A stretch of 64,000 nt of DNA, taken from positions 33,710,929-33,774,928 of the forward strand of contig OY743190.1 in NCBI GenBank assembly GCA_963555705.1, written 5' to 3'. A program made the position numbers and the translations under genes. Positions within the stretch are counted from its first letter, which is position 1, and every line of letters starts with the position of its first letter. The notes below the pieces were generated by a model. That model saw only the letters and a program-made list of their open reading frames with translations, did not search any database and was not told the DNA's origin. Positions 33,983-61,915 of this stretch are shown here, one piece after another. The stretch comes from Ligustrum vulgare. Lineage: Eukaryota; Streptophyta; Magnoliopsida; Lamiales; Oleaceae.

Positions 33983-34593
33983 TCAGTACTAAACTACTAG
34001 CAGAATACACATCTGGGGTTGAGAAAAACATAAAAGAGGAAATTACATAAAATACCCTAGAAATATAATTAATTACATTAATACACTTATACTAATTAAA
34101 CTGTCTAATCACAGTAAAATATACGGTGTAAACGAAGACAGCAAACTGAAGCAAATATTACAAGAACGGATCAAGGGGATCAGCGAGATATCGGCTGAAA
34201 ACCTAGGTGTTGCCAGAGAGGAAAGGCACCTTGTCGACTCCCTTTGAAGTACTTGCTATAATGAACCATCTTCTCTTCGAGAGAGGGGGCTTCTTGCTCT
34301 CCCAGGAGAAGATGCACCGCCGCCAGATGTAGCCAGTAAGCATTTTGAGCCGCCTCTTAGAGCTTGGGGTGCAAACCGCAATCCTGACGCGAAATCTAGT
34401 ACCGAAAAGGAGGAAAAGGAGAAGCCGCCATTATTAGTACTTGGTCCAGGACCCTCATCTTAATGAAGTAAGAATTTCTACTTGGCGGAGCCTTTGCCTA
34501 GTTAAGCTCGTCCCACGCTTCGATCCAAGTCACCATTGCATGTGCAAGCTTGATGAAGTAATCAACCACCTTCCCAAGCTTCGCCTTGACTTG
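33983..34593. other. Unassigned sequence interrupted by a hAT
   Basis: GC content is higher at 34140-34660 than in the flanks. On the minus strand a 46-codon frame (34343 to 34203) begins MLTGYIWRRC and ends KVPFLSGNT; I do not recognise it. The segment continues after the hAT (35229 onward), as the matching 8-bp duplication shows. It may be a decayed gene fragment. Confidence 0.35.
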
Positions 34594-34601
34594 CTTGGCA
34601 A

Positions 34602-35220
34602 CAGTGGCGAATGCAGACTTTTTATAGTACTGGGACACGATTTGTGTTTTTGCTGACGGCCTGTACGAGGATTCGGGGGCAGCGCCCCCGAATATTATTT
34701 TTTTTTTAGGAAGAAGACCGAAAAATTTAAAAAAATACTTGAAATTTTATTACAATTGTTCTATACGCGTTTTCATACTTTGATAACATTCTATAATTAT
34801 ATCATTGTCAATATTAAGTACACATCCTTCTCAATATTTGTTACATCAAATTCAAGAGTGTCACTCTTAACATCCCCAACATTATCCCCGATGTTGAGAC
34901 ATATCTTCAATTTCAACATCATTTTTTTCACCAAGTTCCTCAACCCTTTCATTTCTAACTTCATTTTCATTACTTTGCTTATCAGAAGAAAACCTGGATT
35001 TACGCTTAAAATATTTTTCCAAAACCGATACAAACAAACAAATAAATAATTGTAAACACATATTAACCCTAAAATCTCAAATAATCCAATATAATTTTAG
35101 GGAATCAGGTAATGACTATGTTCAAGAATCAACTTATTTTTTTTATTTTTATTTTTAAAAAAAGTTGAATTTTTACTGGGGGCACATGCCCCAGCGGGCC
35201 CCTATGTGGGTCCGCCCCTG
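34602..35220. mobile_element. Tip100-like hAT, non-autonomous, with perfect 8-bp TSD
   Basis: Left end CAGTGGCGAATGC, right end GTGGGTCCGCCCCTG (reverse CAGGGGCGGACCCAC). The target duplication CTTGGCAA is perfect on both sides (34594-34601, 35221-35228). It also has the subterminal palindrome TTCGGGGGC...GCCCCCGAA at 34673-34693, seen in the hAT at 33100. The inner part is AT-rich with no transposase. Confidence 0.9.
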
Positions 35221-35519
35221 CTTGGCAAGTTCAAGATAACATTTCTGAACAGTGGTGCTGTCTTTTGTAAGGATTACAGATTGGAAAAAGGGATTAACAC
35301 CCTTGTATTCCTTCCATTTCACTTTTCCCAATGTCCTACTATTTCAAAATTGTTTTATTTAAGTCCTACAATGATATTTATAAAAATTTATATAGTAAAT
35401 TTTATTTGGTACTAAATAATTAATTTCAATTCGAATTGGTTTTCTTATTAAATTAAAAGAAATAATAAATATCCAGTACAAAAAGTGACAAATTTGATTA
35501 TGGAATTGCAAAAATAGAA

Positions 35520-37410
35520 AAATTGACCTTCAGGTACAAAAAAAATAACAAATTGTCACATTTTCACTAAAATGTGACAAAATGTCATTTTTTAGCTACA
35601 AGAAAAGATAATTTAAAAAGTAAAGTGGTACAATTATTATAATATTTTGAATAAAATTAATAACTTATGAATTTATTTTAAGGTTTTAATTTATGTTTAA
35701 TTAAAGAAACTAATATACATGTCAATTTTTTTAAAAATAGGTGACATTGTATCATTTTTTTTTTTTTAAAGTGACAAATTTATTAAAAAGGTCATACTGT
35801 CACTTTTTTTTTTAAAGTCGCGGTATGCCACTTTTTCATGTGAAACTGATAAATGTAAGGTGCTTGTTGAGATCAAACATCGGAGAAGTGTCATGTTGTC
35901 ATTTTTTTTTAAAAAAAAAAGTCACAACCTGCCAATTTTTCATATGAAGCTGATGAATGCAAAGTGCTTGTTGAGATCAAGTATTGGAGAAGTGCCATTC
36001 TATCACTTTTTTTTACAAAAAAGTAGCAACCTGCCATTTTTTCATGTGAAGTTGATGAATGCAAGGTGCTTTTTGAGATCAAATATCGAAGAAGTTTTAT
36101 GCTAACACTTTTTTTTAGAAAAAGTCGTAGCCTACCACTTTTTCATGTGAAGCTGATGAATGCAACGTGCTTGTTGAGATCAAACATCCGAGAAGTGTCA
36201 TTATAATACTTTTTTTGAAAAAAGTCGCAACCTGCCACATTTTCATGTGAAGCTGATGAATGCACAATCCGAGAAGTGTCATTCTGTCACTTTTTTATAA
36301 AAAAGTCGCAGCTTGCCAATTTTTCATGTGAAGTTGATGAATGCAATGTGCTTGTTAAGATCAAGCATCGGATAAGTGCCATCCTGACATTTTTTTAAAA
36401 AAAGCCACAAACTGCCACTTTTTCATGTGAAGTTGGTCAATACACATCACCATTGGAGAAGTGTCATTCTATCACTTAAAAAAAAAAAAGTCGCATCTGC
36501 CGCTCTTCCATCTAAAAAGTGACACAATGCCAATTTTTTGAGATAGTGTAATGAATATTGCAAAAATTGAAAACGTGACATTCAAATAGAAAAAAGGAGT
36601 AAAGTGTCACTTTTTAGTTCAAATAAAAAGTGATAAAAAGTGATATTGTGTCACATTTTTTTAAAAAGTGGCATTGCATCACTTTTTTTTAAAAAAAGTG
36701 AGAAAATTATTAAAAAGTTAACAAAATTTTTTAAAAAGTGACCTTTTTAGTAGAATTTTTTTTCGAAAAAAAGTAGTATTTGGTCAATTTTTCTTTAAAA
36801 AAGGGTATTGTATCACATTTTAGTTTAAAAAGTGACATTTAATCATTTTTTCTTTTTAAAAAAAAAAAGTGATAAAATGATAAAAAGTGACATTGTGTAT
36901 TGTGTCACTTTTTTATTAAGAAAATAATAAAAAGTGACATTCAAGTAGCAAAAAGTAACAAAATATTACTTTGTTTTTACTAAAAAGTGACACTGTATCA
37001 CTTTTTAATTAAAAGAGAAGGCGAGTTAAAACAAAAAGTGATAAGGAAAAAAAAAGTGGCATTGTGTAATATATCTATTAATGTTTGTGGACTTATGTAA
37101 TTTATTAGCCAATGATTAATATTGAAAAAAAATATGAAATTGACCTTAAAGTAGAAAAAAGTGACAAATTGTCACTTTTTAGTTAAAAGAAAAAGTGATA
37201 AAAAATGAAATTATTTAAAAGGCACAATTATTCCAATATTTTGAATAAAATTAACAAGTCATGAATTTATTCTAAGGTTTTATTTTATGTTTAATTGAAA
37301 AAGTAACGTATATATCAATTTTTTAAAAATAAGTGACATTATGTCACTTTTTTTAAAAAGTGACAAAATTATTTAAAAAGTGACAAAAACATTAAAAAAG
37401 TGACACCCAA
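35520..37410. repeat. GTGACA/TGTCAC-rich array with flanking direct repeats
   Basis: The stretch is packed with AAAAAGTGACA and its reverse TGTCACTTTTT. Its two ends are diverged direct copies: 35520-35760 and 37130-37370 share ACAATTATT, AATATTTTGAATAAAATTAA, ATGAATTTATT and TTTATGTTTAATT in the same order. The middle contains a 100-bp tandem repeat (35816-36490). There is no coding potential beyond accidental frames. It may be a decayed repetitive element or satellite; its origin is unknown to me. Confidence 0.75.
35816..36490. repeat. About seven tandem copies of a ~100-bp unit
   Basis: Each unit runs GTCGCAACCTGCCACTTTTT, then CATGTGAAGCTGATGAATGC, AGGTGCTTGTTGAGATCAA, CATCGGAGAAGTGTCATT and a T/A-rich linker ending at the next GTCGC. 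Unit starts are at about 35816, 35920, 36023, 36124, 36223, 36304 and 36403. Units 5 and 7 are shortened in the middle. Confidence 0.85.
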
Positions 37411-37449: not shown

Positions 37450-37939
37450 TGTATTTTTATAAATGATCTAAAAATAAGGATATTTGTGTTAATACCCCCA
37501 ACATAAAAACTGACAATGTCAATTATATAAGCCAGAAAGAAATGTATAATCAAACTTGAATTCGTATTCACTAAGAGCATGATATCAAGATTAATTATAT
37601 TTTTTTTGTCAAGTAAAAGAAGTTACTTTTTTCCAAAGTAAAAACCATAATGAAAACTATACAATCTAGAGAATGAATTAATATATTAAACAAACGGCCA
37701 AGAAAAAAGAAAAAGAGAGAATGAAACTTGCTCTAGAGAACGGGTGGCTATTAACAGGGAAAACCCGATCGACCAAACAATAATCAATTAAACTAGTGGA
37801 AATTATACTCTCCCATGTTTATTAAGTTATAATTTCATAATTCAAATTTTGCCCATATCTTTTAAAAAATCAGGTTTTTTTTTTTAAAAAAACTTTTATT
37901 TAGATAATTTTTATTCATTAAGACGGGCGTATCTATCAC
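37450..37939. other. Left flank of the Mutator-like element
   Basis: AT-rich, no gene recognised. I searched for inverted-repeat partners of the sequence near 47300-47460 here and saw none. Confidence 0.4.
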
Positions 37940-38456
37940 ACGTTCACTTTGAAACCGCCATCTCTGAAGCAACCCTGTAGAAACGCCATCACATCTCCCG
38001 TTAACCTTCCACGCCGCTTGCCGTCTCCCCACGTCGCTCGCCATTATTTTCGACCTCGGTACCAGAAATTTAGACATTGTATACGTTTGATTGTGAAACA
38101 TTTTTTACAGAAAAAAATCTATAAAATGGTTCGATCGAGGACTGTTGATCCGTCGAAGAAGGAGGACGAGCATGGGAATAGAAGAGATAACAGGAAGAGG
38201 CTTATAATGCATGAAGAAACTTCATCAAAAAAACCGAAATCTGCTGTGTCGGGATTGATATTGTCGAAGAAGGTATTTCTATTTTAGTTAGTTAAATGTT
38301 GAAAAAGTCACAATGCGCAATAATGAAGTTGAATGTAATTGATTTTCTATGACATGATTTTGTTCCATCATGGTCACAAAATTTTAGGACGAAATTTGAA
38401 TATTTTTTAATGAGGGTGTTTAGGAATTGATTCTATTTGATTTTGAAATGATTATT

Positions 38457-38773
38457 GTTGTAATTTTGATTTTGTGACCTCCAATTTACCTTCTGTGACT
38501 CGTCACTTTATAAATTTGTGACCAATCATAGTCACAAATTTATGACCAATGTTCATGTTTCTTGCCATTCACAGTCACAAATATTTTACAGTAATCTTTT
38601 GATAAAAATGTGACTAATGTTCATGTTTCTTGCCATTCACAAGATTGTGACCAATATGTCATTTGATTTGAGATAGTTGTGACCTCTGTTGAGTTGTAAT
38701 TTTGATTTTGTGACCTCCAATTTACCTTCTGTGACTCGTCACTTTATAAATTTGTGACCAATCACAGTCACAA
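38457..38773. repeat. 85-bp direct repeat in intron 1 of the Ulp1 gene
   Basis: 38457-38537 and 38693-38773 are almost identical. The shared text includes TTTGTGACCTCCAATTTACC, CTTCTGTGACTCGTCAC and TTTGTGACCAATCA. Both copies are rich in TGTGACC. Confidence 0.9.
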
Positions 38774-40117
38774 TATTTTAAGCATAAGATGTGTGTTTAG
38801 AAACTGATCATGTCTTATTATAGGATTGAGCATTGTTATAGTTTTGATCTTGTGACCTTTCGAAATTTTGGTGTTGTGAGTAATCATTTCATAAAAATGT
38901 GACTAATGTCATGTTTCTTGTCATTCACAAGTTTGTGACCAATCTGTCATTTGATTTGAGATAGTTGTGACCTCTTTTGATTTGAGATAGTTTGTGACCA
39001 ATCTGTCATTTGATTTGTGTATTTATAGACTTTAATATACAATTTATGTTTTAAAATAATGCAGCATTGGAAGTTCGTTATTCCTCCAGACCTTTGGTTT
39101 CCAGGGAAGATTACAACGAATTTCACAAAGGGGGTACTAAAAAATATTGTAACAAAATTCAGTGATGCCCAGCGAGAGATATTCTTGAGGACTTGTTTCT
39201 CGCTCTTCATGCACACTCATGAAATTGTGGTTCAACCACAATTAATACACTATTTTTTATTGAGGCGGGTCAATTATCCCGATGAAGATGAGATGTGGTT
39301 CAACATTTTCGGACGATTTGTTAGGTTTTCATTGTCGGAGTTTTGTTTAGTCATTGGTCTTGGACAAGTCGGTAATGATGATAGAAAGAAATTTGAATCC
39401 ATTCCATCAAAATTGAAGGAAACATATTTCATCAAGTTCAAAGTTGTGACCAACGAAGACGTTCGAGATGTGTTCATTACAGCTCCTGTTATTCCAGATA
39501 TAGATATAGATATCGTTAGACTTGGGATTTTGTACTTCATTATGTCTTTTTTGTTATCGACATCATACAAAAAGGTCATTGACCATTACCTGTTTTGTTC
39601 TTGTTGAAGATTTTGATTTGATGAACAATTTCCCTTGGGCCAAACACTTGTTTAAGAGCACCGTAACTTCTTTGAGGGAAGATTTCGTGAAAATGAATAG
39701 TCATTATAGATTAAAAGGCCTCCTCGTTGCATTTCAAGTGTGGATTTATGAGACTATTCATTGTCTTGATGGAGTTGTGGTTAAAAAGATGTGTAGTAAG
39801 TACCCCCGCATATTGAATTGGAAAGCGGATGAGCAACCCTTAGCTGCTAAATTGGAAGGAACAGAATTATTATCCAATCCTAATGTAAGGATTGATATTC
39901 ACTTTTGTGACTATTTTGTTTCATAATGTCTTATATAATATATGTAGCTTTTGTTCACATTTTTATCATTTAATGTGTATTAGCATATTCAAGTAAACTA
40001 TTTGGATCCTTCTGCTACGGAAATGATGATGCCTTATATGAGTGGGGTGCCATACAACAAACTAGTGCAACCAAGGCTTGCGCATGATACAGGAACAAGT
40101 TCAGAGGGAGTTCTGAA

Positions 40118-40335
40118 GAAAAAATCTCCTGGTCACAAGGACAAATCTTCTGGTCACAAGGACGGGTCTTCTGGTCACAAGTTAAGATCATCAGATCACA
40201 AGACAGGATCATCTGGTCACAAGTCAGAATCACATGCTCACAAGTTAGGATCAGATGGTCACAATCCAGGACCAGATGGTCACAAGTCAGGATCTGGAGG
40301 TCACAATAAATCTTTTTCTGGTCACAAGGCAGACA
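40118..40335 (+). repeat. In-frame GGTCACAAG repeat encoding Gly-His-Lys units
   Basis: Ten units spaced by about 21 bp, each centred on GGTCACAAG or a variant (GATCACAAG, GCTCACAAG, GGTCACAAT). They give SGHK/DHK/AHK/GHN every seven residues. The same heptamer fills the element's non-coding parts. Confidence 0.9.
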
Positions 40336-42839
40336 TTGGACAGCCTAATCCACATGACGATGATGATTTCGTTGATCCTCCATCAAGATTTGTTCCAACA
40401 TCAAGTGCTGAAGATTCTCTAAAGGAAGGGCTCACAACACACCCACCTGAATGTTCTTGCGTCGATGTAAGTTATTGACAACTATTTTATAATTATAATT
40501 TGATTAGAGCATAATACCTATCGAATTTTCCCATGTGGCAGATATGTGACAAACTGAAAAGTGATATGAGTTCCCAGCTATGTGACTTGCAGGCGAAGAA
40601 TGAAATCCTGACATCAGAAGTTGTGTCTTTGAGGGCAAACTTGAGTGCACTAAGGTCACAGAACACTCTCTCAGACGCAATCAAAAGGAGATAAAAGGTG
40701 ATATATTTGAAATCAAATCGAAAATGAGCACGTTCATGGAAGGTGTGAACCAGTTGGTATCAAAAGCAATGGAAGACTTGCAGAAAAAGATGGGTGAATC
40801 ATCTAAACAACATATTCCAATACCATCAGAAGTTGAGAATCCAAAAGGAAAAAGCAAGGTGGAAGATGATAGTGGTGGAACAGATTCCTATTTTGAACAA
40901 TTTCTGCCACCTTCATTTGATCTCGGTGTTGGGTCAACCCAGTCCCAATTACAGGAACACCAGCAAGCTGATGTATTTTGTGACCCGACGTTGCAGAAAA
41001 AAGTTGATGATGTAATTGCAGATGTTTTGGAATCAACAGAACCTGACAATATTGAGGTAAATTTAACAATTTTCATCATATATGTGACCAAATCATACAT
41101 CATTGACCAACTGTATGTGAACCCTTGCTGTCTATGACCTGTTGCAATGTATATGACCCCTTGCTGTCTGTGACCTGTGTTTAATAATAAACATGAGATG
41201 TTTGAATACCTGTCTTAATAATATATGTGACCTGTTTTTAACCCTTGACCAACTGAACTCAATGTCTGTGACCCCTTGCTGTATGTGACCTGTTTCATTA
41301 CTTCTGTGACCTAGCTGAAGAATATATTACGTTCTGTGACCTAGCTGATGAACATATTATGTCCTATGACCTGTGATGTTTATTTCATTGTTGTAGGTAT
41401 CACCACTTGCTACACCAACTACAGGGGAGGAGGAAGATAAATCATCTGAACTGCTCGTGAAAAGGGCTCCTAAACTAACAAGGATTCTTAAATCGCCCTT
41501 CATTGTTGAGGAAGGAAAACAATCAAAGTGTGTTGACAGTGCACCAATTTTTTCGAAGTATAACGTGCATGTGGAAGATGCCGATCTTGTCACATATCAA
41601 AATTAATAGGGGTTTCAAACCCAAAAACAAGTAGTATTCATTGGTCACAAACTATGTGTATTTATTTTTTTATGTGCTGCAAATAGTATATAAGTATTTG
41701 TTGTTTTGTTTATAGGAAAAAGTTCAACGAAGAAGACGACATCATAGATCCTGCTTTTGTATTTGGAACCATCCCTGCAGGTTACAAAACTTGGTGGCAT
41801 CAGTTGAGTGATCCAGAGTTATCATTGTGTAGCACGGTATGATTTCACTTAGAATATCACTGCTGTATTATATAATTGTGACTTTCTAATTGTGTACTTT
41901 CATGTCAACTGTAATAGCACATGGATGTATGTTTTTACTACATACGTCAACTTGCCAGTTTTGGATACAATGTCAAGATCAAAGCCACGACAACAGACTC
42001 TCTATTCCAAGCCAAGATAAAAAATATTTATCCACACTTTCAGAAAGATCCAAACATGAATATGTCTGATTCAAACCTTATAGATTACGTTACTGGACGT
42101 TTGTCATTGAGTAGTCATTGGGCCGATGTTGACCATGTCTTTATTCCGATAATATCTAGTAATCGTGCTCATTGGATTCTGGGGAAACTCGATGTAAAAA
42201 ACTGTGAAATATACATATACAATTCTAGCAGCAAGACTTACAGGGAAAATCTAGTACTTGATGGGATCCAACCATTTTCTCAAATTATCCCACATTTAAT
42301 GAAAGTTGTTGGTATTTGGAAGGGAAGATCTGGTGATTGTCGTGAAGAACAAACAAATTTGAATATAAGAATTGTCAGGAACATTCCGCAACAGCAAAAT
42401 GGGTAAGTTTGTGACTTGATTTGTCAAGTACATACATGTTATTGTGACCTGCATAAGTACTAATATATTATCCTGTGATTATTTTTTCAGCCATGACTGT
42501 GGACTTTTCGTGATTAAATATGCGGAGTACCTACTGCATGATGATCTCGGAAATATGCCGATGAATTTTGATTCTTCTAGAGCTAGACTTGACATAGCTT
42601 CATTGTTGTTTAAACACCGGAAAATTATGCAGGTCACAAAGCGTGGATAACAAAAGGGAGATAACATCTTGGTAGAGTGATAGTTGAAGCTATATGATGT
42701 ATTTTCCAATGAAGAATAGTTTTTGTTTTTTCCAAAAAACTTGTAATGAACATGACCGTGATATACTTTTGACCATATAGTTTAGTTCTTTCAGTTCTGG
42801 GTTTTTTTTTTTTTTTAATTTGAATAATGTGATTGTCGT

Positions 42840-43260
42840 TTGTCACAATTCATCCTATTTGGTCACAGGTAATATGCTGACAGGCCACAATGTAATTGTC
42901 AGAGGTCACAAATTCAACCTATGCTTTATATGTCCCCAGGTCACACATTATATCAGAAACTGGTAATAGGTCACAGTCCCACTGGTTATAGTTCATTGTT
43001 AACAATCCAGGCTAATACAAAGGTTATAGATTATATGGTAACAGGTCACATTTCAGACTTTTACCTGTTTTATATGGTTACAGATTATAACAAATTATGT
43101 ATTGACAGCATGTCACTGATCAGACGTCAATTATTAAAGGTTACAGTTTCACATAGAGTAAGTCACAAATCGTGTAACAGATTTGATAACAGGTCACAAG
43201 ACATAAATGCAAATAATGGAATAACGATGAAAAAAAGAATCCTTAGTAATTTTTGTCCCT
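42840..43260. repeat. GTCACA-rich gap between Ulp1 and transposase genes
   Basis: About ten GGTCACA-like words, all in this orientation, in DNA between the two converging genes. Example neighbours are TTTGGTCACAGG, GAGGTCACAAAT and CAGGTCACATTT. No gene. Confidence 0.8.
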
Positions 43261-43343
43261 GATCATTTCTTCAGTTGCCTATCTTTTATGGTCTTCAGTT
43301 TTGACTGGCTATGGCTTAATGGAACCAAGCTGCTGCACGATCT

Positions 43344-45862
43344 TCAATTGTGACCATGTTCTCCACAGCGTCCACATTTCACAATTTGTTTTCTTTCCAA
43401 ACACGATCTTCTCCTCTTTTTAGTTGGCCTTCCGGAACTCCTTTTTTGCTTTGGAGCCAATACAATCTTGTCGAGTACTTCTTCAGACGTTGTCCACTGG
43501 TTTTCATTTCCCACCGGGAATACAGTTTCTTTGTAAGCATTGATGTAGGCCTCTCGTGTGTAATAGTATGAACAATATTCATATGGATCCATCTTTCGAT
43601 TTGCAAGCACGGCTAGTGTGTGAGGACATGGTAATTGATCTACTTGAAGCATTCTACAAGTACAAGTACGTTGATTTATATCAACCACAAATGACGTGCT
43701 ATCATCACTAACTAAGAAAATGGTTTGATTGGCAGCACATACCTGCAGATAATGATGAGAAGTATTTGGTCACAAAAAAAGCTTACTCATACTTCAGGTC
43801 ACACAGGCAAGGTTTCAGGTCACACAAGTCAAAAAATAACATTCCAAGTAATATAATTTAAATAATTATATATCAGGTCACAGATAAGATTTCAGGTCAC
43901 AGAATAAGATATTAGCTTACAAAATTTAAATGCAATCAAATTCATCAATTCTTTAAATAAGATTTCAGGTCACACAAATATGATTTCACGTCACACAAGT
44001 CACAGAGATAAGATTTCAGGTCACAGAATAAGATATTAGGTCACAGAATTTATATGCAACCAAATTCTTTAAATAAGATTTCAAGTCACACAGGTCACAG
44101 AATAACATTTCAAGTCACAGGATAGGATATTACCCTCATATTCCTCAATTCTATGCTCGTTTCTCTCATCTGCTTCTCATATTTGGTCGTGAGCCTTGTG
44201 AAGGTTCCATGTGCATTATCTCTGTTTTTACAAAACCATGCTTGTATAGTTTTCCTCAATGACTCCAGCAAAGCTACAACAGGGTAGTTTTTGGCTACCT
44301 TTGTGACCGCATTCAATGATTCCACTATATTAGACGTCATTGTTGAGTATCTGTTTGTTGGCATATGGAATCGTGACCACCTCTCAGGTCCAACTTCTTT
44401 CTACGAAGAGAAAACATTAGAATAAGTAATAAGTTACTACAATTGAAATGATATAGCCGTCAAATTTAATTGAGAATTCTACATTACCAAGTACTTGAGT
44501 AATATTTTGACCAGATTTACCAAAATGTTTCTTCAAATTTTGTAGCAAGTGATATGAACAAATTCCATGACATGTTCCCGGATACACAACTTCAATTGCC
44601 TTCCTTATACTGTCATGTCGATCAGAGACAAAACATAGTCCCTTCCTTTCCTTGTAAGCCTTCTTCAAGTTGGCAAGAAACCATGCCCATGATTTGTCAT
44701 TCTCGTTATCTCCAATTCCAAATACGAGTATGAATATGTTATTATTCGCATCTTGTGTACAAGCAGTGAAAAGAGTACCACCATAGTGACCATTTAGGTA
44801 TGTACCATCTACCACGATCACAGGTCTACAATGTTCCCATCCAACGATCGATGCACCTAACGCCATAAAGCAATAAATGAACCTATTGTGACCATCCAAC
44901 TTTATACCTATGATCGAGCCAGGATTTGTATGTTCAAGCATGAAGAAATAATTTGGTAATGTCTTGAAATATTCTGTTGGATCACCCCTAATCATTTTCA
45001 AAGTTTGCTCACGAGATCTCCAAGCCTTTACGTAGTTCAATGAAACTCCATATATATGCAACACGTCGTTACGTATATCATTCGGAGTATATATAGTACG
45101 CGATGAGGAATACTTATACTTGATGCATGATGATACAACAGAAGTTGAGACTTTCCTATGAGATCCTAAGACAATGTTCGATGTACATGTGTGGCCATCA
45201 ACCAACTTTCTAATTTTGAATAACTCTGTTTTCCCCAATCTGGATGATCCGCTTATCCATCTGCACTCATCATGTAAACACTTGACAAGATACTTCTTTT
45301 TGTCCGATCGAACAACCATATACTCAAACATGTTCTGTATTGCAAAAAATGACAAGCTCAATTTTAGAATTTCTTTGTTGTGGAAAACGTTTCCTTCTGA
45401 TACATCTCTCGCATCAGCAATAGATACAATTGAGACCATATCATCAGGAATGTGACCTGTTTCTTCAATTGTTGCCTCACATATTTCTGATGCTATCTTC
45501 TCCAATGAATATAATTCTCTACATGAATTTTCATGCATTGGTACTGGCTCCATATATGGAAAAATATCACTTGCTTGTCCACTGACTGCTAATGTGACAT
45601 CAATGTATATGGGATATTTGGAAGGGTCAGAATCTATACTTTTGAGCTTCAAATAAGACACCACATTTTTATCATTCAGTATTCTGACAGGAGGCAAGTT
45701 GCTACTCAATACGTAATTCATTGAAACTGCGACTTTCAAAGGATTCAACGTGAATTCGGACATCACAATCTGAACGAGCTTCATATAAACACAATTATTT
45801 TCAACCAAAACTAATGACGAGTGCGCTCCATGCACCAAACAAACATGAAAGTGATCCATACC
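43344..45862 (-). pseudogene. MURA-type Mutator transposase with internal gap
   Basis: On the minus strand three coding exons are read: 45862 to about 44494, 44400-44134 and 43742-43344. Exon 1 holds the N-terminal MuDR domain (MVVRSDKKKYLVKCLHDECRW, then GHTCTSN) and the MULE catalytic core: VIVVDGTYLNGHYGG (first Asp), LCFVSDRHDSIRKAI (second Asp) and HGICSYHLLQNLKKHFG. Exon 2 has MTSNIVESLNAV (probably including the catalytic Glu). Exon 3 has the SWIM zinc finger (RTCTCRMLQVDQLPCPHTLAVL) and a partial zinc knuckle CGRCGEHGHN. The segment usually linking core and MTSN motif, some 70 residues, is missing, so this copy may be internally deleted. The first exon starts at a TTTGCAG acceptor; Met at 45859 is a possible start. 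An upstream leader exon near 47200 is likely. Confidence 0.85.
43770..44133. repeat. GTCACA-rich intron 2 of the transposase gene
   Basis: The intron is built of short modules such as GATTTCAGGTCACACAAGTCA and GAATAAGATATTAGGTCACAG, repeated in variants. Spacing is about 20-30 bp. Confidence 0.8.
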
Positions 45863-45889
45863 CTGCAAATATATCACAAATGTTAATAT

Positions 45890-47010
45890 TTTGGTGATTA
45901 AATTTAGCTACAGGTTACAGATTGATATGACAAAAATTTGCTACAGGTCACAGACTAAGTGCGGGGGTCACAGATTTTAATACCAGGTCACTAAACAAAA
46001 CAAGGGGTCACAAGGCTTAGTTACAGGTCACAGATTTTAATGTGTAGGTAACATAGTTAGACTACAGGGTTTAGTTGAAGGCCACAGGGTTTAGTTACAA
46101 GTCACATGGCTTAGTTGCAGGTCACAGGGTTTAAGTGTAGGTCATAGAACAAAGCCACAGGTGACATGGCTTAATTGCAGGTCACAAAGCATCGTTGCAA
46201 GTCATAGGGTTTAAGCCGCCGCCAGTCACAAGGCATAACGACAGGTCACAGGAGTTAATGTGTAGGTCACACAACAAATCCACAGGTCACAAGGCTTTGT
46301 TCCAGGCCACAGGATTTTAAGTGCAGGTCACATGATGCAAACAGAGGTCACAAATATTAAATTAAACAGATCACACGATTCAGATGCATGTCACATAATT
46401 AACTGCGGGTCACAGCAACATCTGTGTTGGTCACAAGATTAAGCCACGGGTCACAAGATATAGTGGAAGGCCACAGGGTTTAGTTGCAAGTCACATGGTT
46501 TAGTTGCAGGTCACAGGGTTTAAGTGTAGGTCACAGAACAAAGCCACAGGTGACATGGCTTAATTGCAGGTCACAAAGCATCGTTGCAAGTCACGGGGTT
46601 TAAGCCGCCGCATGTCACAAGGCTTAACGACAAGTCACGGGAGTTAATGTGTAGGTCACATAATAAATCCACAGGTCACAAGGCTTTGTTCTAGGCCACA
46701 TGATTTTAAGTGCAGGTCATGCAAACAGAGGTCACAAATATTAAATTAAATAGATCACACCATTCAGATGCAGGTCACATAATTAACTGCGTTGGTTACA
46801 GCACAAAGCCACAAGTCAGAAGGCTTAGTTGCAGGTCACAAGGCATAGTTGCAAGTCACAAGGTTTAGTTGCAGGTCACATGGCTTCGTTCCAGGCCACA
46901 TGAGTTAATGTGTAGGTCACAGAACAAAGCCACAGGTCACAACATTTAGTTCCAGGCCACAGGGGTTTAAGTGCAGGTCACATAATGCAAACAGAGGTGA
47001 GAAACATCGA
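45890..47010. repeat. Dense GGTCACA array with a ~400-bp segmental duplication
   Basis: GGTCACAG/GGTCACAA and variants recur about every 20-25 bp with filler words TTTAGTTGCA, TTTAAGTGTA and AAAGCCACA. A block from about 46072 to 46400 is repeated at about 46468-46785 with few changes (GGCCACAGGGTTTAGTT, AGGTGACATGGCTTAATTGC, TTTAAGCCGCCGC occur in both). A third partial copy follows. It lies in the leader intron of the transposase gene. Confidence 0.9.
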
Positions 47011-47500
47011 CGGTGAAAAAGATCGACGCTGGGAAAGGACAATTGCTGTTGTTTTGATGTAGATTATACAAATTGAATTCAATTTAAAACACTTACCCTC
47101 TATTATTGAACAATTAGATGATTCTAGGTGCAAATAGGAAGATGCTGTAGCTTAATTTCAATGATGGCGATTACAAACCTGTGATCGATTTCAGCAATAG
47201 GTATCAGTTCGGATGTCGGTTTGAGTTGAGAGATTCAGCTTCGTCGTTGATGGCAGAGGAAAAGTTATGGGAAGAATCTCCATTTCAGTTACGTATCTTG
47301 ATTTTATGGAGTTTATGTTTGATATGGAATGTATATTAATATATTTTTTTGTTATAAATAGTTTCTATATTGACCCGACTTTTGAAACTTGGGACACGAG
47401 ATTGTCAAAGATGAATTGGTATCTTTAAAATACCTTATACGCGTCTTTTTCCCCATCAGAAATGTGGATGCAATTAGACCAGTTTATAGAGCATCCCAAG
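47011..47500. other. Right flank and leader of the MULE
   Basis: On the minus strand ATCGATCACAGGTTTGTAATC (about 47175-47195) looks like an exon end with a GT donor, a candidate 5' leader exon of the transposase gene. An AT-rich block with GTTATAAATAG (about 47350-47360) follows. No terminal repeat is evident. Confidence 0.4.
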
Positions 47501-55081: not shown

Positions 55082-56567
<1,486 letters not shown>

Positions 56568-60809: not shown

Positions 60810-61410
60810 GAATCAAGTATTAACCCCGATCAATGGATTAGTAATGAACATCACGCTCTAACCACGATCAATGGATTAGTAATGAACAATGCACAGACTC
60901 CGATCAAAGGAATCATTTTGAACAATGTACAGACCCCGATCATAGGAATCACACTAAACAATGTACAAACCTCGATCAGAAGGAATCATATTGAACAATG
61001 TACAAACCCCGATCATAGGAATCACACTAAACAATGTACAAACCTCGATCAGAAGGAATCATATTGAACAATGTACGAACCCCGATCACAAGGAATCATA
61101 TTGAACAATGTAGAAACCCCGATTAAAAGGGATCATATTGAACAATGTATGAACCCCGATCAAAAGGAGTCATATTGAACAATGTATAAACCCCGATCAT
61201 AAGGAGTCATATTGAACAATGTATAAACCCCGATCATAGGAATCATATTGAACAATGTAGAAACCCCAATTAAAAGGAATCATATTGAACAATGTATGAA
61301 TCCCGATCAAAAGGAGTCATATTGAACAATGTATAAACCCCGATCATAAGGAGTCATATTGAACAATGTATAAACCCCGATCATAAGGAATCATATTGAA
61401 CAATGCACAC
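60810..61410. repeat. Tandem array of a ~37-bp unit in the Tat element
   Basis: About fifteen copies of a unit like CCCCGATCATAAGGAATCAT, ATTGAACAATGTATAAA. The first units are the most diverged. Blocks of two or three units are themselves repeated (for example 60955-61055, and 61095-61250 against 61255-61390), a sign of unequal exchange. Confidence 0.9.
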
Positions 61411-61499: not shown

Positions 61500-61915
61500 A
61501 TGCTCGCGGGCAAGGCATCCTAGTGTTTCCTCGTAGGGAAGGCTTTCGAATGCTCGTCCGTTCGCAAGGCTTTGGGTGCTTCCTCGTGGGGAAGGCTTTC
61601 GAGTGCTTGCTCGTGTGCAAGGCTTTGGGTGCTTCCTCGTGGGGAAGGCTTTGGAGTGCTTGCTCGTGCGCAAGGCTTTGGGTGCTTCCTCGTGGGGAAG
61701 GCTTTGGGTGCTTCCTCGTGGGGAAAGCTTTCGAGTGCTTGCTCGTGCACAAGGCTTTGGGTGCTTCCTCGTGGGGAAGGCCAAAGGTGCTTCCTCGTGG
61801 GGAAGGCTTTCGAGTGCATGCTCGTGGGCAAGACTTTGTGTGCTTGCGCGGGGTAAGACTTTGTGTGCTTGCGCGGGGCAAGACTTTGAGTGCTTCCTCG
61901 TGGGGAAGGCTTTTG
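61500..61915. repeat. GC-rich tandem array of a 26-27-bp unit
   Basis: Two alternating monomers, TGCTTCCTCGTGGGGAAGG-CTTTCGAG and TGCTTGCTCGTGTGCAAGG-CTTTGGG, in about fifteen copies. The unit length close to a multiple of three keeps several frames open on both strands; none looks like a real protein. Confidence 0.9.

What the first reader, a model, noticed from the sequence alone, without database searches (positions are those of the whole stretch)
37940..47300. A Ulp1-carrying Mutator element built around one heptamer, GGTCACA
The word GGTCACA/TGTGACC and near variants recur throughout this element: in the Ulp1 gene introns (38300-39060, 41060-41400), the intergenic gap (42840-43260), the transposase introns (43770-44130) and the leader (45890-47010, about every 20-25 bp). 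Orientation changes: introns on the left mostly read TGTGACC, the right half reads GGTCACA, so the two halves point towards each other, like a spread-out inverted repeat. MULE transposases bind terminal motifs; a dispersed array could be binding sites, a silencing-evasion signal, or a slippage product. I know of no described MULE with such internal arrays. The function is inference; the repeats are seen directly.
Basis: partly seen in the sequence, partly recalled or inferred. Interest (0 to 1): 0.9.

Follow-up and report, generated by a model that had tools for sequence, protein, structure and literature searches.

The report
Transposon studded with likely anti-silencing sites
A Mutator-type jumping gene, in what is likely an olive-family plant, carries one seven-letter word 77 times in its introns, gaps and exons; distant relatives in the same genome keep the word while the noncoding DNA around it no longer aligns, so it is likely the docking code for the element's own protein, predicted to lift the host's silencing from the element.

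Summary
GGTCACA/TGTGACC occurs 77 times in the element (37796-47453) and 4 times in the other 54 kb; shuffles of the element without its leader give at most 6 (51 seen). The element is a 9.66-kb Mutator-like transposon without terminal inverted repeats (a sister copy has a 9-bp target duplication). It encodes a MULE transposase and, convergently, a DUF1985 + Ulp1-protease protein. New here: (1) the heptamer is kept in three lineages of this genome whose DUF1985 is about 50% identical and whose noncoding DNA no longer aligns (21 of 21 family-B loci, the one family-D locus, 26 of 29 other family-A copies), while 11 of 12 other DUF1985 loci have none and one has a single copy; (2) orientation follows transcription, not element halves: sense introns read TGTGACC (53 of 55), sense exons GGTCACA (14 of 16); (3) eight words encode SGHK-type repeats in one exon; (4) gene-less elements carry the array. 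Binding and demethylation are inferred, not shown.

The parts
37796..47453 (.). Whole element (family A), non-TIR Mutator-like, 9658 bp; begins GTGGAAATTA, ends TTTTTCCC
   Evidence: Left end from 3 copies (L009, L010, L012), right end from 2 (L012, L027); L012 has 9-bp TSD TTCCAACAA; ends pair no better than shuffled (score 22, maximum of 200 shuffles 30). The window copy itself shows no TSD.
38126..42650 (+). DUF1985 + Ulp1 (Peptidase_C48) gene, about 8 predicted exons; VANC/KIU-like; reading frame broken in this copy
   Evidence: PF09331 E 1.7e-13, PF02902 E 3.5e-13; sister copies L009 and L010 read open through the DUF1985 exon, L012 breaks later in it
39065..39884 (+). DUF1985 exon
   Evidence: PF09331 in 39065-39574
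38274..39064 (+). Motif array in Ulp1-gene intron 1, sense TGTGACC (10 T, 1 G)
40131..40326 (+). Exonic array, 8 GGTCACA at multiples of 21 bp, encoding SGHK-type peptide repeats between DUF1985 and Ulp1
41057..41396 (+). Motif array in Ulp1-gene intron, sense TGTGACC (7)
42861..43198 (.). Intergenic array between the convergent genes, 6 GGTCACA on +
43344..45868 (-). MULE transposase gene, 3 coding exons (44489-45868, 44131-44400, 43344-43748)
   Evidence: PF10551 E 2.2e-23, PF03108 E 1.5e-9, PF04434 SWIM E 1.1e-8
43768..44099 (-). Motif array in transposase intron, sense TGTGACC (9)
45869..47097 (-). Predicted 5'UTR intron (leader) with the densest array: 26 words, sense TGTGACC, spacings near 20-21 bp and multiples
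   Evidence: splice sites predicted from sequence only

Best explanation
A Mutator-like transposon of the non-TIR kind carries 77 copies of GGTCACA, which are likely the DNA address read by its own DUF1985-Ulp1 protein, predicted to bind the arrays and remove host silencing from the element and its gene-less relatives. Steps: (1) shown: element, two genes, arrays, copies, relatives. (2) Inferred from Arabidopsis VANC21/VANC6: the DUF1985 protein binds the repeated word, and dense arrays rather than single sites mark a target. (3) Inferred: bound protein causes loss of DNA methylation, so the transposase is expressed and acts on autonomous and gene-less copies alike. (4) Inferred: if binding tolerates either strand, orientation is set by the transcript. 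In introns the sense strand carries TGTGACC, which keeps acceptor-like CACAG words out; in exons it carries GGTCACA, which has no stop in any frame, while TGTGACC has TGA in one.
For: DUF1985 and Ulp1 domains in the partner gene. Arrays sit in introns, intergenic gap and leader, as VANC21 ChIP sites do (PMC5735166). The same heptamer is kept by families A, B and D (DUF1985 47.6-52.3% identical): 7-14 words in each of 21 B loci, 13 in the one D locus; 0 in 11 of 12 other DUF1985 loci, 1 in the twelfth. A, B and D form one clade (95/95; order within it unresolved). With the motif masked, A noncoding DNA matches B no better than E 0.009 and D no better than E 0.36, yet arrays persist, partly in different introns (B: between transposase exons 1 and 2; A: between 2 and 3). 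Orientation: introns TGTGACC 53 of 55, exons GGTCACA 14 of 16, Fisher 6e-11; B transposase exons read 4:0 in each of two copies. Leader spacing is phased near 10.2-10.5 bp (0 of 2000 jitters as strong), B in 13 of 2000. Gene-less elements with like ends and 9-bp TSDs carry TGTGACC arrays (L065/L072, 7 words; L073, 3 plus variants).
Against: No binding, methylation or expression data. Among young family-A copies motif positions do not mutate more slowly than the rest: transposase intron 0.0163 v 0.0162 (21 copies), intergenic 0.0286 v 0.0182 (9), Ulp1 intron 41057 0.0294 v 0.0186 (4), exon array 0.0317 v 0.0274 (3), intron 1 0.0053 v 0.0067 (3). Helical phasing is absent in the A introns plus intergenic array (625 of 2000 jitters reach it) and in the gene-less elements (1791 of 2000). 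D shows mixed orientation (6 G, 7 T). Three B words just before the Ulp1 exon run against the intron rule if they are intronic. Only two genes were seen; a VANB was not searched for. Outside families gave no convincing motif of their own.
Confidence: 0.72

Rival explanations
1. The words are binding sites of the element's transposase (subterminal or internal), needed for transposition rather than anti-silencing.
For: The densest array lies 0.5-1.5 kb from the right end, and gene-less elements keep ends plus array; the transposase has MuDR-type and SWIM zinc-finger domains.
Against: The outermost exact words lie 576 and 471 bp inside the two ends (38372 and 46976-46982), and arrays fill internal introns, the intergenic gap and an exon far from both ends. 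Published DUF1985 proteins bind such noncoding arrays.
Confidence: 0.1
2. Host transcription factor or RNA-processing signal: the word recruits a host factor, or acts in the transcript, given that orientation follows transcription.
For: Orientation follows sense strand and exon/intron status.
Against: The word is reversed in exons relative to introns and occurs between genes and in gene-less elements, which fits a DNA site better than one RNA signal. Its presence tracks a DUF1985 clade inside one genome.
Confidence: 0.1
3. Neutral by-product of slippage and tandem duplication, copied by recent amplification.
For: The leader is a tandem array with about 20-bp units and a higher-order unit of about 390 bp, and its length varies between copies (1002-1417 bp in the 6 of 30 that reach the anchor); no constraint visible among young copies.
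Against: Spacers differ between arrays and little beyond the heptamer (mostly A/T before it) is shared; three lineages keep it across unalignable noncoding DNA; orientation rule.
Confidence: 0.06

Closest known systems
VANDAL21 (Hiun) / VANC21, Arabidopsis (PMC5735166, parts 1-3 of 6 read; PMC10398659, part 1 of 6 and passages)
   Same: Mutator-like element; DUF1985 protein with tandem peptide repeats; short motif dense and same-oriented in introns, intergenic and terminal noncoding DNA; tandem repeats that vary between copies; degenerate TIRs
   Different: Motif YAGTATTAY there, GGTCACA here; VANDAL21 has a third gene (VANB), and the paper stresses motif change between related families, whereas this motif is kept across deep divergence; here one array is exonic
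KIU (Kaonashi) Ulp1-carrying VANDALs of eudicots (passages of review PMC13317346; Sasaki et al. 2022, PMC9016345, not held, known only from citation and recall)
   Same: VANC-type gene with Ulp1 domain in a non-TIR MULE; recognises motifs in related elements
   Different: The motifs reported there could not be read, so whether GGTCACA is among them is unchecked
Maize Spm/En TnpA (recalled)
   Same: Transposon protein binding short repeated sites and counteracting methylation
   Different: CACTA superfamily, subterminal sites, no DUF1985

Membership tests
Mutator-like element (MULE) | MULE/MuDR transposase | tested here: met
   PF10551, PF03108, SWIM
Mutator-like element (MULE) | 9-bp target-site duplication | tested here: met
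   Sister copy L012: TTCCAACAA both sides, the one A copy of which both ends were held with flanks; the window copy itself shows none
VANDAL / non-TIR MULE | No or degenerate terminal inverted repeats | tested here: met
   End-to-end score 22, maximum of 200 shuffles 30
VANDAL / VANC anti-silencing system | DUF1985 protein encoded by the element | tested here: met
   PF09331 E 1.7e-13, above cut-off
VANDAL / VANC anti-silencing system | Dense same-orientation short motif in noncoding regions | tested here: met
VANDAL / VANC anti-silencing system | VANC binds the motif | not testable with these tools
   needs DAP-seq or gel shift
VANDAL / VANC anti-silencing system | Motif-bearing copies lose methylation when the protein is expressed | not testable with these tools
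   needs transgenic plants and bisulfite sequencing
VANDAL / VANC anti-silencing system | Three genes VANA, VANB, VANC | tested here: inconclusive
   Only two genes seen; VANB itself was not searched for
KIU (Kaonashi) Ulp1-carrying VANDAL | Ulp1 (C48) domain in the VANC-type gene | tested here: met
   PF02902 E 3.5e-13
VANDAL clade by transposase phylogeny | Transposase groups with VANDAL transposases | not tested
   No Arabidopsis transposase was compared

The most novel reading that the evidence does not exclude
A transposon address code frozen in deep time: three non-TIR MULE lineages, about 50% apart in their DUF1985 protein, all keep one heptamer while the rest of the noncoding DNA turns over and arrays move between introns. 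The code is even written into the reading frame of the protein predicted to read it (SGHK repeats), its strand is dictated by splicing and stop codons, and gene-less elements propagate by displaying it. This is the opposite of the fast motif change reported for Arabidopsis VANDALs.
Probability: 0.5. Interest if true: 0.72.

Novelty: new variant of a known kind. Interest (0 to 1): 0.55.

Why it matters
If the motif is the DUF1985-Ulp1 protein's target, this genome holds a natural series (A, B, D with the word; nearest sampled relatives without it) for asking which residues of a DUF1985 protein read DNA and why one protein-site pair stays fixed while Arabidopsis pairs change fast. It could also offer a new sequence-specific demethylation tool with a 7-bp address, and the orientation rule suggests how a binding site can be fitted into introns and exons without wrecking the transcript.

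Tried and rejected
Inverted-repeat reading of the two halves: rejected, orientation follows transcript strand and exon/intron. Constraint on the motif among young copies: not seen (the window's own L001 and copies covering under 80% of a region were dropped). Own motifs of outside families: in L033 the word CGACCGA does exceed shuffles (score 21.7 v 8.4), but it comes from four palindromic TTTCGGTCGACCGAA-type repeats within about 130 bp upstream of the exon, read here as an unrelated local repeat; CGACAGA in family C is at or a little above the shuffle maximum (L034 12.2 v 12.2; L049 12.3 v 9.5; 40 shuffles) and is not the top word in L038 or L053. Acceptor-like words: a first count after flipping the words in place showed no difference in CACAG (3 v 3); the whole-intron count of YACAG is 4 sense v 43 antisense, but this is partly the motif itself read backwards, so it illustrates the idea rather than tests it. 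Structure prediction of a DUF1985 relative (P0001, 57% identical to the family-A exon) had mean pLDDT 54, so no fold search was run. A genome-wide pattern count of arrays was asked for 12 times and never answered, so arrays outside the families seen here are not excluded. Papers PMC3773815 and PMC9016345 are not held. Searches for GGTCACA/TGTGACC with MULE terms and for Oleaceae with VANDAL terms listed no paper on this motif (listings only, the top 12 of 2332 and top 8 of 12).

Full report
Observation. The heptamer GGTCACA/TGTGACC occurs 77 times in 37796-47453 and 4 times in the rest of the 64-kb window. An unbiased 7-mer scan puts it first in the element (77 seen, 1.6 expected). Each array separately exceeds all 200 shuffles, and the element without its leader has 51 against a shuffle maximum of 6.

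The element. The window's own assembly, G000 (1.385 Gb, 51 contigs, unnamed), gave 40 scored places at 95-100% identity to the transposase exon, the window's own included, out of 648 candidates; DUF1985 gave 150 scored of 2382 candidates. Comparing copies fixes the left end at 37796 (3 copies) and the right end at 47453 (2 copies); copy L012 has the 9-bp target duplication TTCCAACAA, the window copy has none. The ends do not form an inverted repeat better than shuffled sequence. Pfam finds DUF1985 and Ulp1 peptidase exons on the + strand and MULE, MuDR-type and SWIM domains on the - strand. The window's Ulp1 gene is broken; sister copies L009 and L010 read open through the DUF1985 exon, L012 breaks later in it. 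Protein relatives of the family-A DUF1985 exon are 17 hits at 41-59% identity, 9 of them named as olive (Olea europaea) and 8 unnamed, so the host is likely a member of the olive family or near it; this is inference.

Copies. Of 30 loci with flanks, one being the window's own, 27 hold at least 19 words in the 1.5 kb upstream of the transposase; in the other 3 continuous similarity ends at 46009-46067 and they look truncated. Downstream, 26 of 30 hold at least 8; of the other 4, similarity starts only at 44189-44284 in L017, L023 and L025 and at 43986 in L015. Leaders that reach a fixed anchor (6 of 30) vary from 1002 to 1417 bp with 23-36 words. In alignable regions the motif does not mutate more slowly than other sites; in three of five noncoding or exon-array regions its rate is higher. 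These copies are young and seem to decay neutrally, so they carry no evidence of constraint.

Deep retention. Of the 30 best DUF1985 loci, 21 form family B, 47.6-50.8% identical in DUF1985 to the window. All 21 have 7-14 words per 3.4 kb. One of four further loci, picked from the other 120 rows of the hit table before any sequence was seen, is family D (50% to the window, 52% to B) with 13 words. The 12 other loci (9 of the 30, 3 of the 4) have none, except one word in L048; the 8-kb extension of L034 (L067) has none either. These outside loci are few and several lineages are represented once. A maximum-likelihood tree of 19 rows groups A, B and D (95/95, order inside unresolved; the program warns of long branches), with L033/L068 as sister and family C farther off; L043 and L057 were not in the tree. 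Two long B stretches carry the same convergent gene pair (transposase exon 59% identical over 461 residues in B37). With words masked, A noncoding DNA matches B no better than E 0.009, and that hit is A's right terminal 40 bp against what looks like the end of a neighbouring gene-less element; D no better than E 0.36. So the heptamer outlived the DNA around it, and arrays sit in partly different introns.

Orientation. In the window, sense introns read TGTGACC in 53 of 55 cases and sense exons GGTCACA in 14 of 16 (Fisher 6e-11); the intergenic gap reads GGTCACA on + in 6 of 6. Words in a tandem array are not independent events, so the p-value is a guide. In B37 and B56 transposase exons read 4:0 GGTCACA in sense and the rest of the transposase gene 4:0 and 3:0 TGTGACC; Ulp1-gene sequence outside matched exons reads TGTGACC 14:3 and 15:3 (three of the 14 in B37 appear to belong to a neighbouring element). 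D is mixed. The exon/intron contrast suggests transcript constraint: TGTGACC in sense avoids CACAG acceptor-like words in introns, while GGTCACA has no stop codon in any frame. This is inference; the word count offered for it (4 v 43) is partly the motif itself.

Spacing. Leader spacings cluster at 20-21 bp and multiples, phase best at 10.2 bp, and no jitter of 2000 is as strong at 10.5; B reaches it in 13 of 2000; the A introns plus intergenic array do not (625 of 2000), nor do the gene-less elements (1791 of 2000). The exon array is exactly 21 bp, which codons also impose.

Gene-less relatives. Beside B37 lies a 1267-bp element with 9-bp duplication ATTGTTTTT, ends like A's, longest open frame 92 codons and 7 TGTGACC. 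Its array-plus-right-end part recurs widely (40 places scored of 4028 candidates). L073 is another, with 9-bp duplication TAATTGGAG, 3 exact TGTGACC (and one GGTCACA) and many one-letter variants (read from the printed sequence). Unlike A, the 1267-bp one keeps a degenerate inverted repeat.

Meaning. Arabidopsis VANDALs provide the model: VANC21, a DUF1985 protein, occupies introns, intergenic and terminal noncoding DNA of VANDAL21, binds YAGTATTAY in vitro, and causes loss of methylation; VANC6 uses AGTTGTCC/AC (PMC5735166, parts 1-3 of 6). VANC proteins have variable parts with tandem peptide motifs, as the SGHK repeats are here. A 2026 review says Ulp1-bearing VANC genes (KIU) act the same way and are conserved in eudicots (PMC13317346, passages), citing Sasaki et al. 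2022, which is not held. The mechanism is therefore a known kind; the motif, its retention over three lineages, the exon array and the orientation rule are what this case adds. Whether GGTCACA is already listed in Sasaki et al. 2022 could not be checked.

Noticed in passing
window 34000-37400: A second word crowd, AAAAAGT (45) and AAAAGTG (32) in 3.4 kb, with a 102/203-bp tandem repeat at 35826-36432, ends just left of the element; some copies form short hairpins such as AAAAAGTGACAAATTGTCACTTTTT.
   Followed up: no
L072:1-1246 and L065 end: Gene-less 1267-bp element with a degenerate inverted repeat of up to about 190 bp; 4028 first-look candidate places in the genome.
   Followed up: partly
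L034, L049, L032: Family C DUF1985 loci share CGACAGA / TTCTCGACAG words, a weak candidate for another family's own motif.
   Followed up: partly
window 55413-56567: Polyubiquitin gene of five ubiquitin repeats in one open frame.
   Followed up: no
window 60860-61409 and 61501-61913: Two adjacent minisatellites, 37-bp and 26/53-bp units.
   Followed up: no
window 37787-37795 and 47454-47462: The window copy has no target-site duplication although both ends are present, so it may be a recombinant or old copy.
   Followed up: partly
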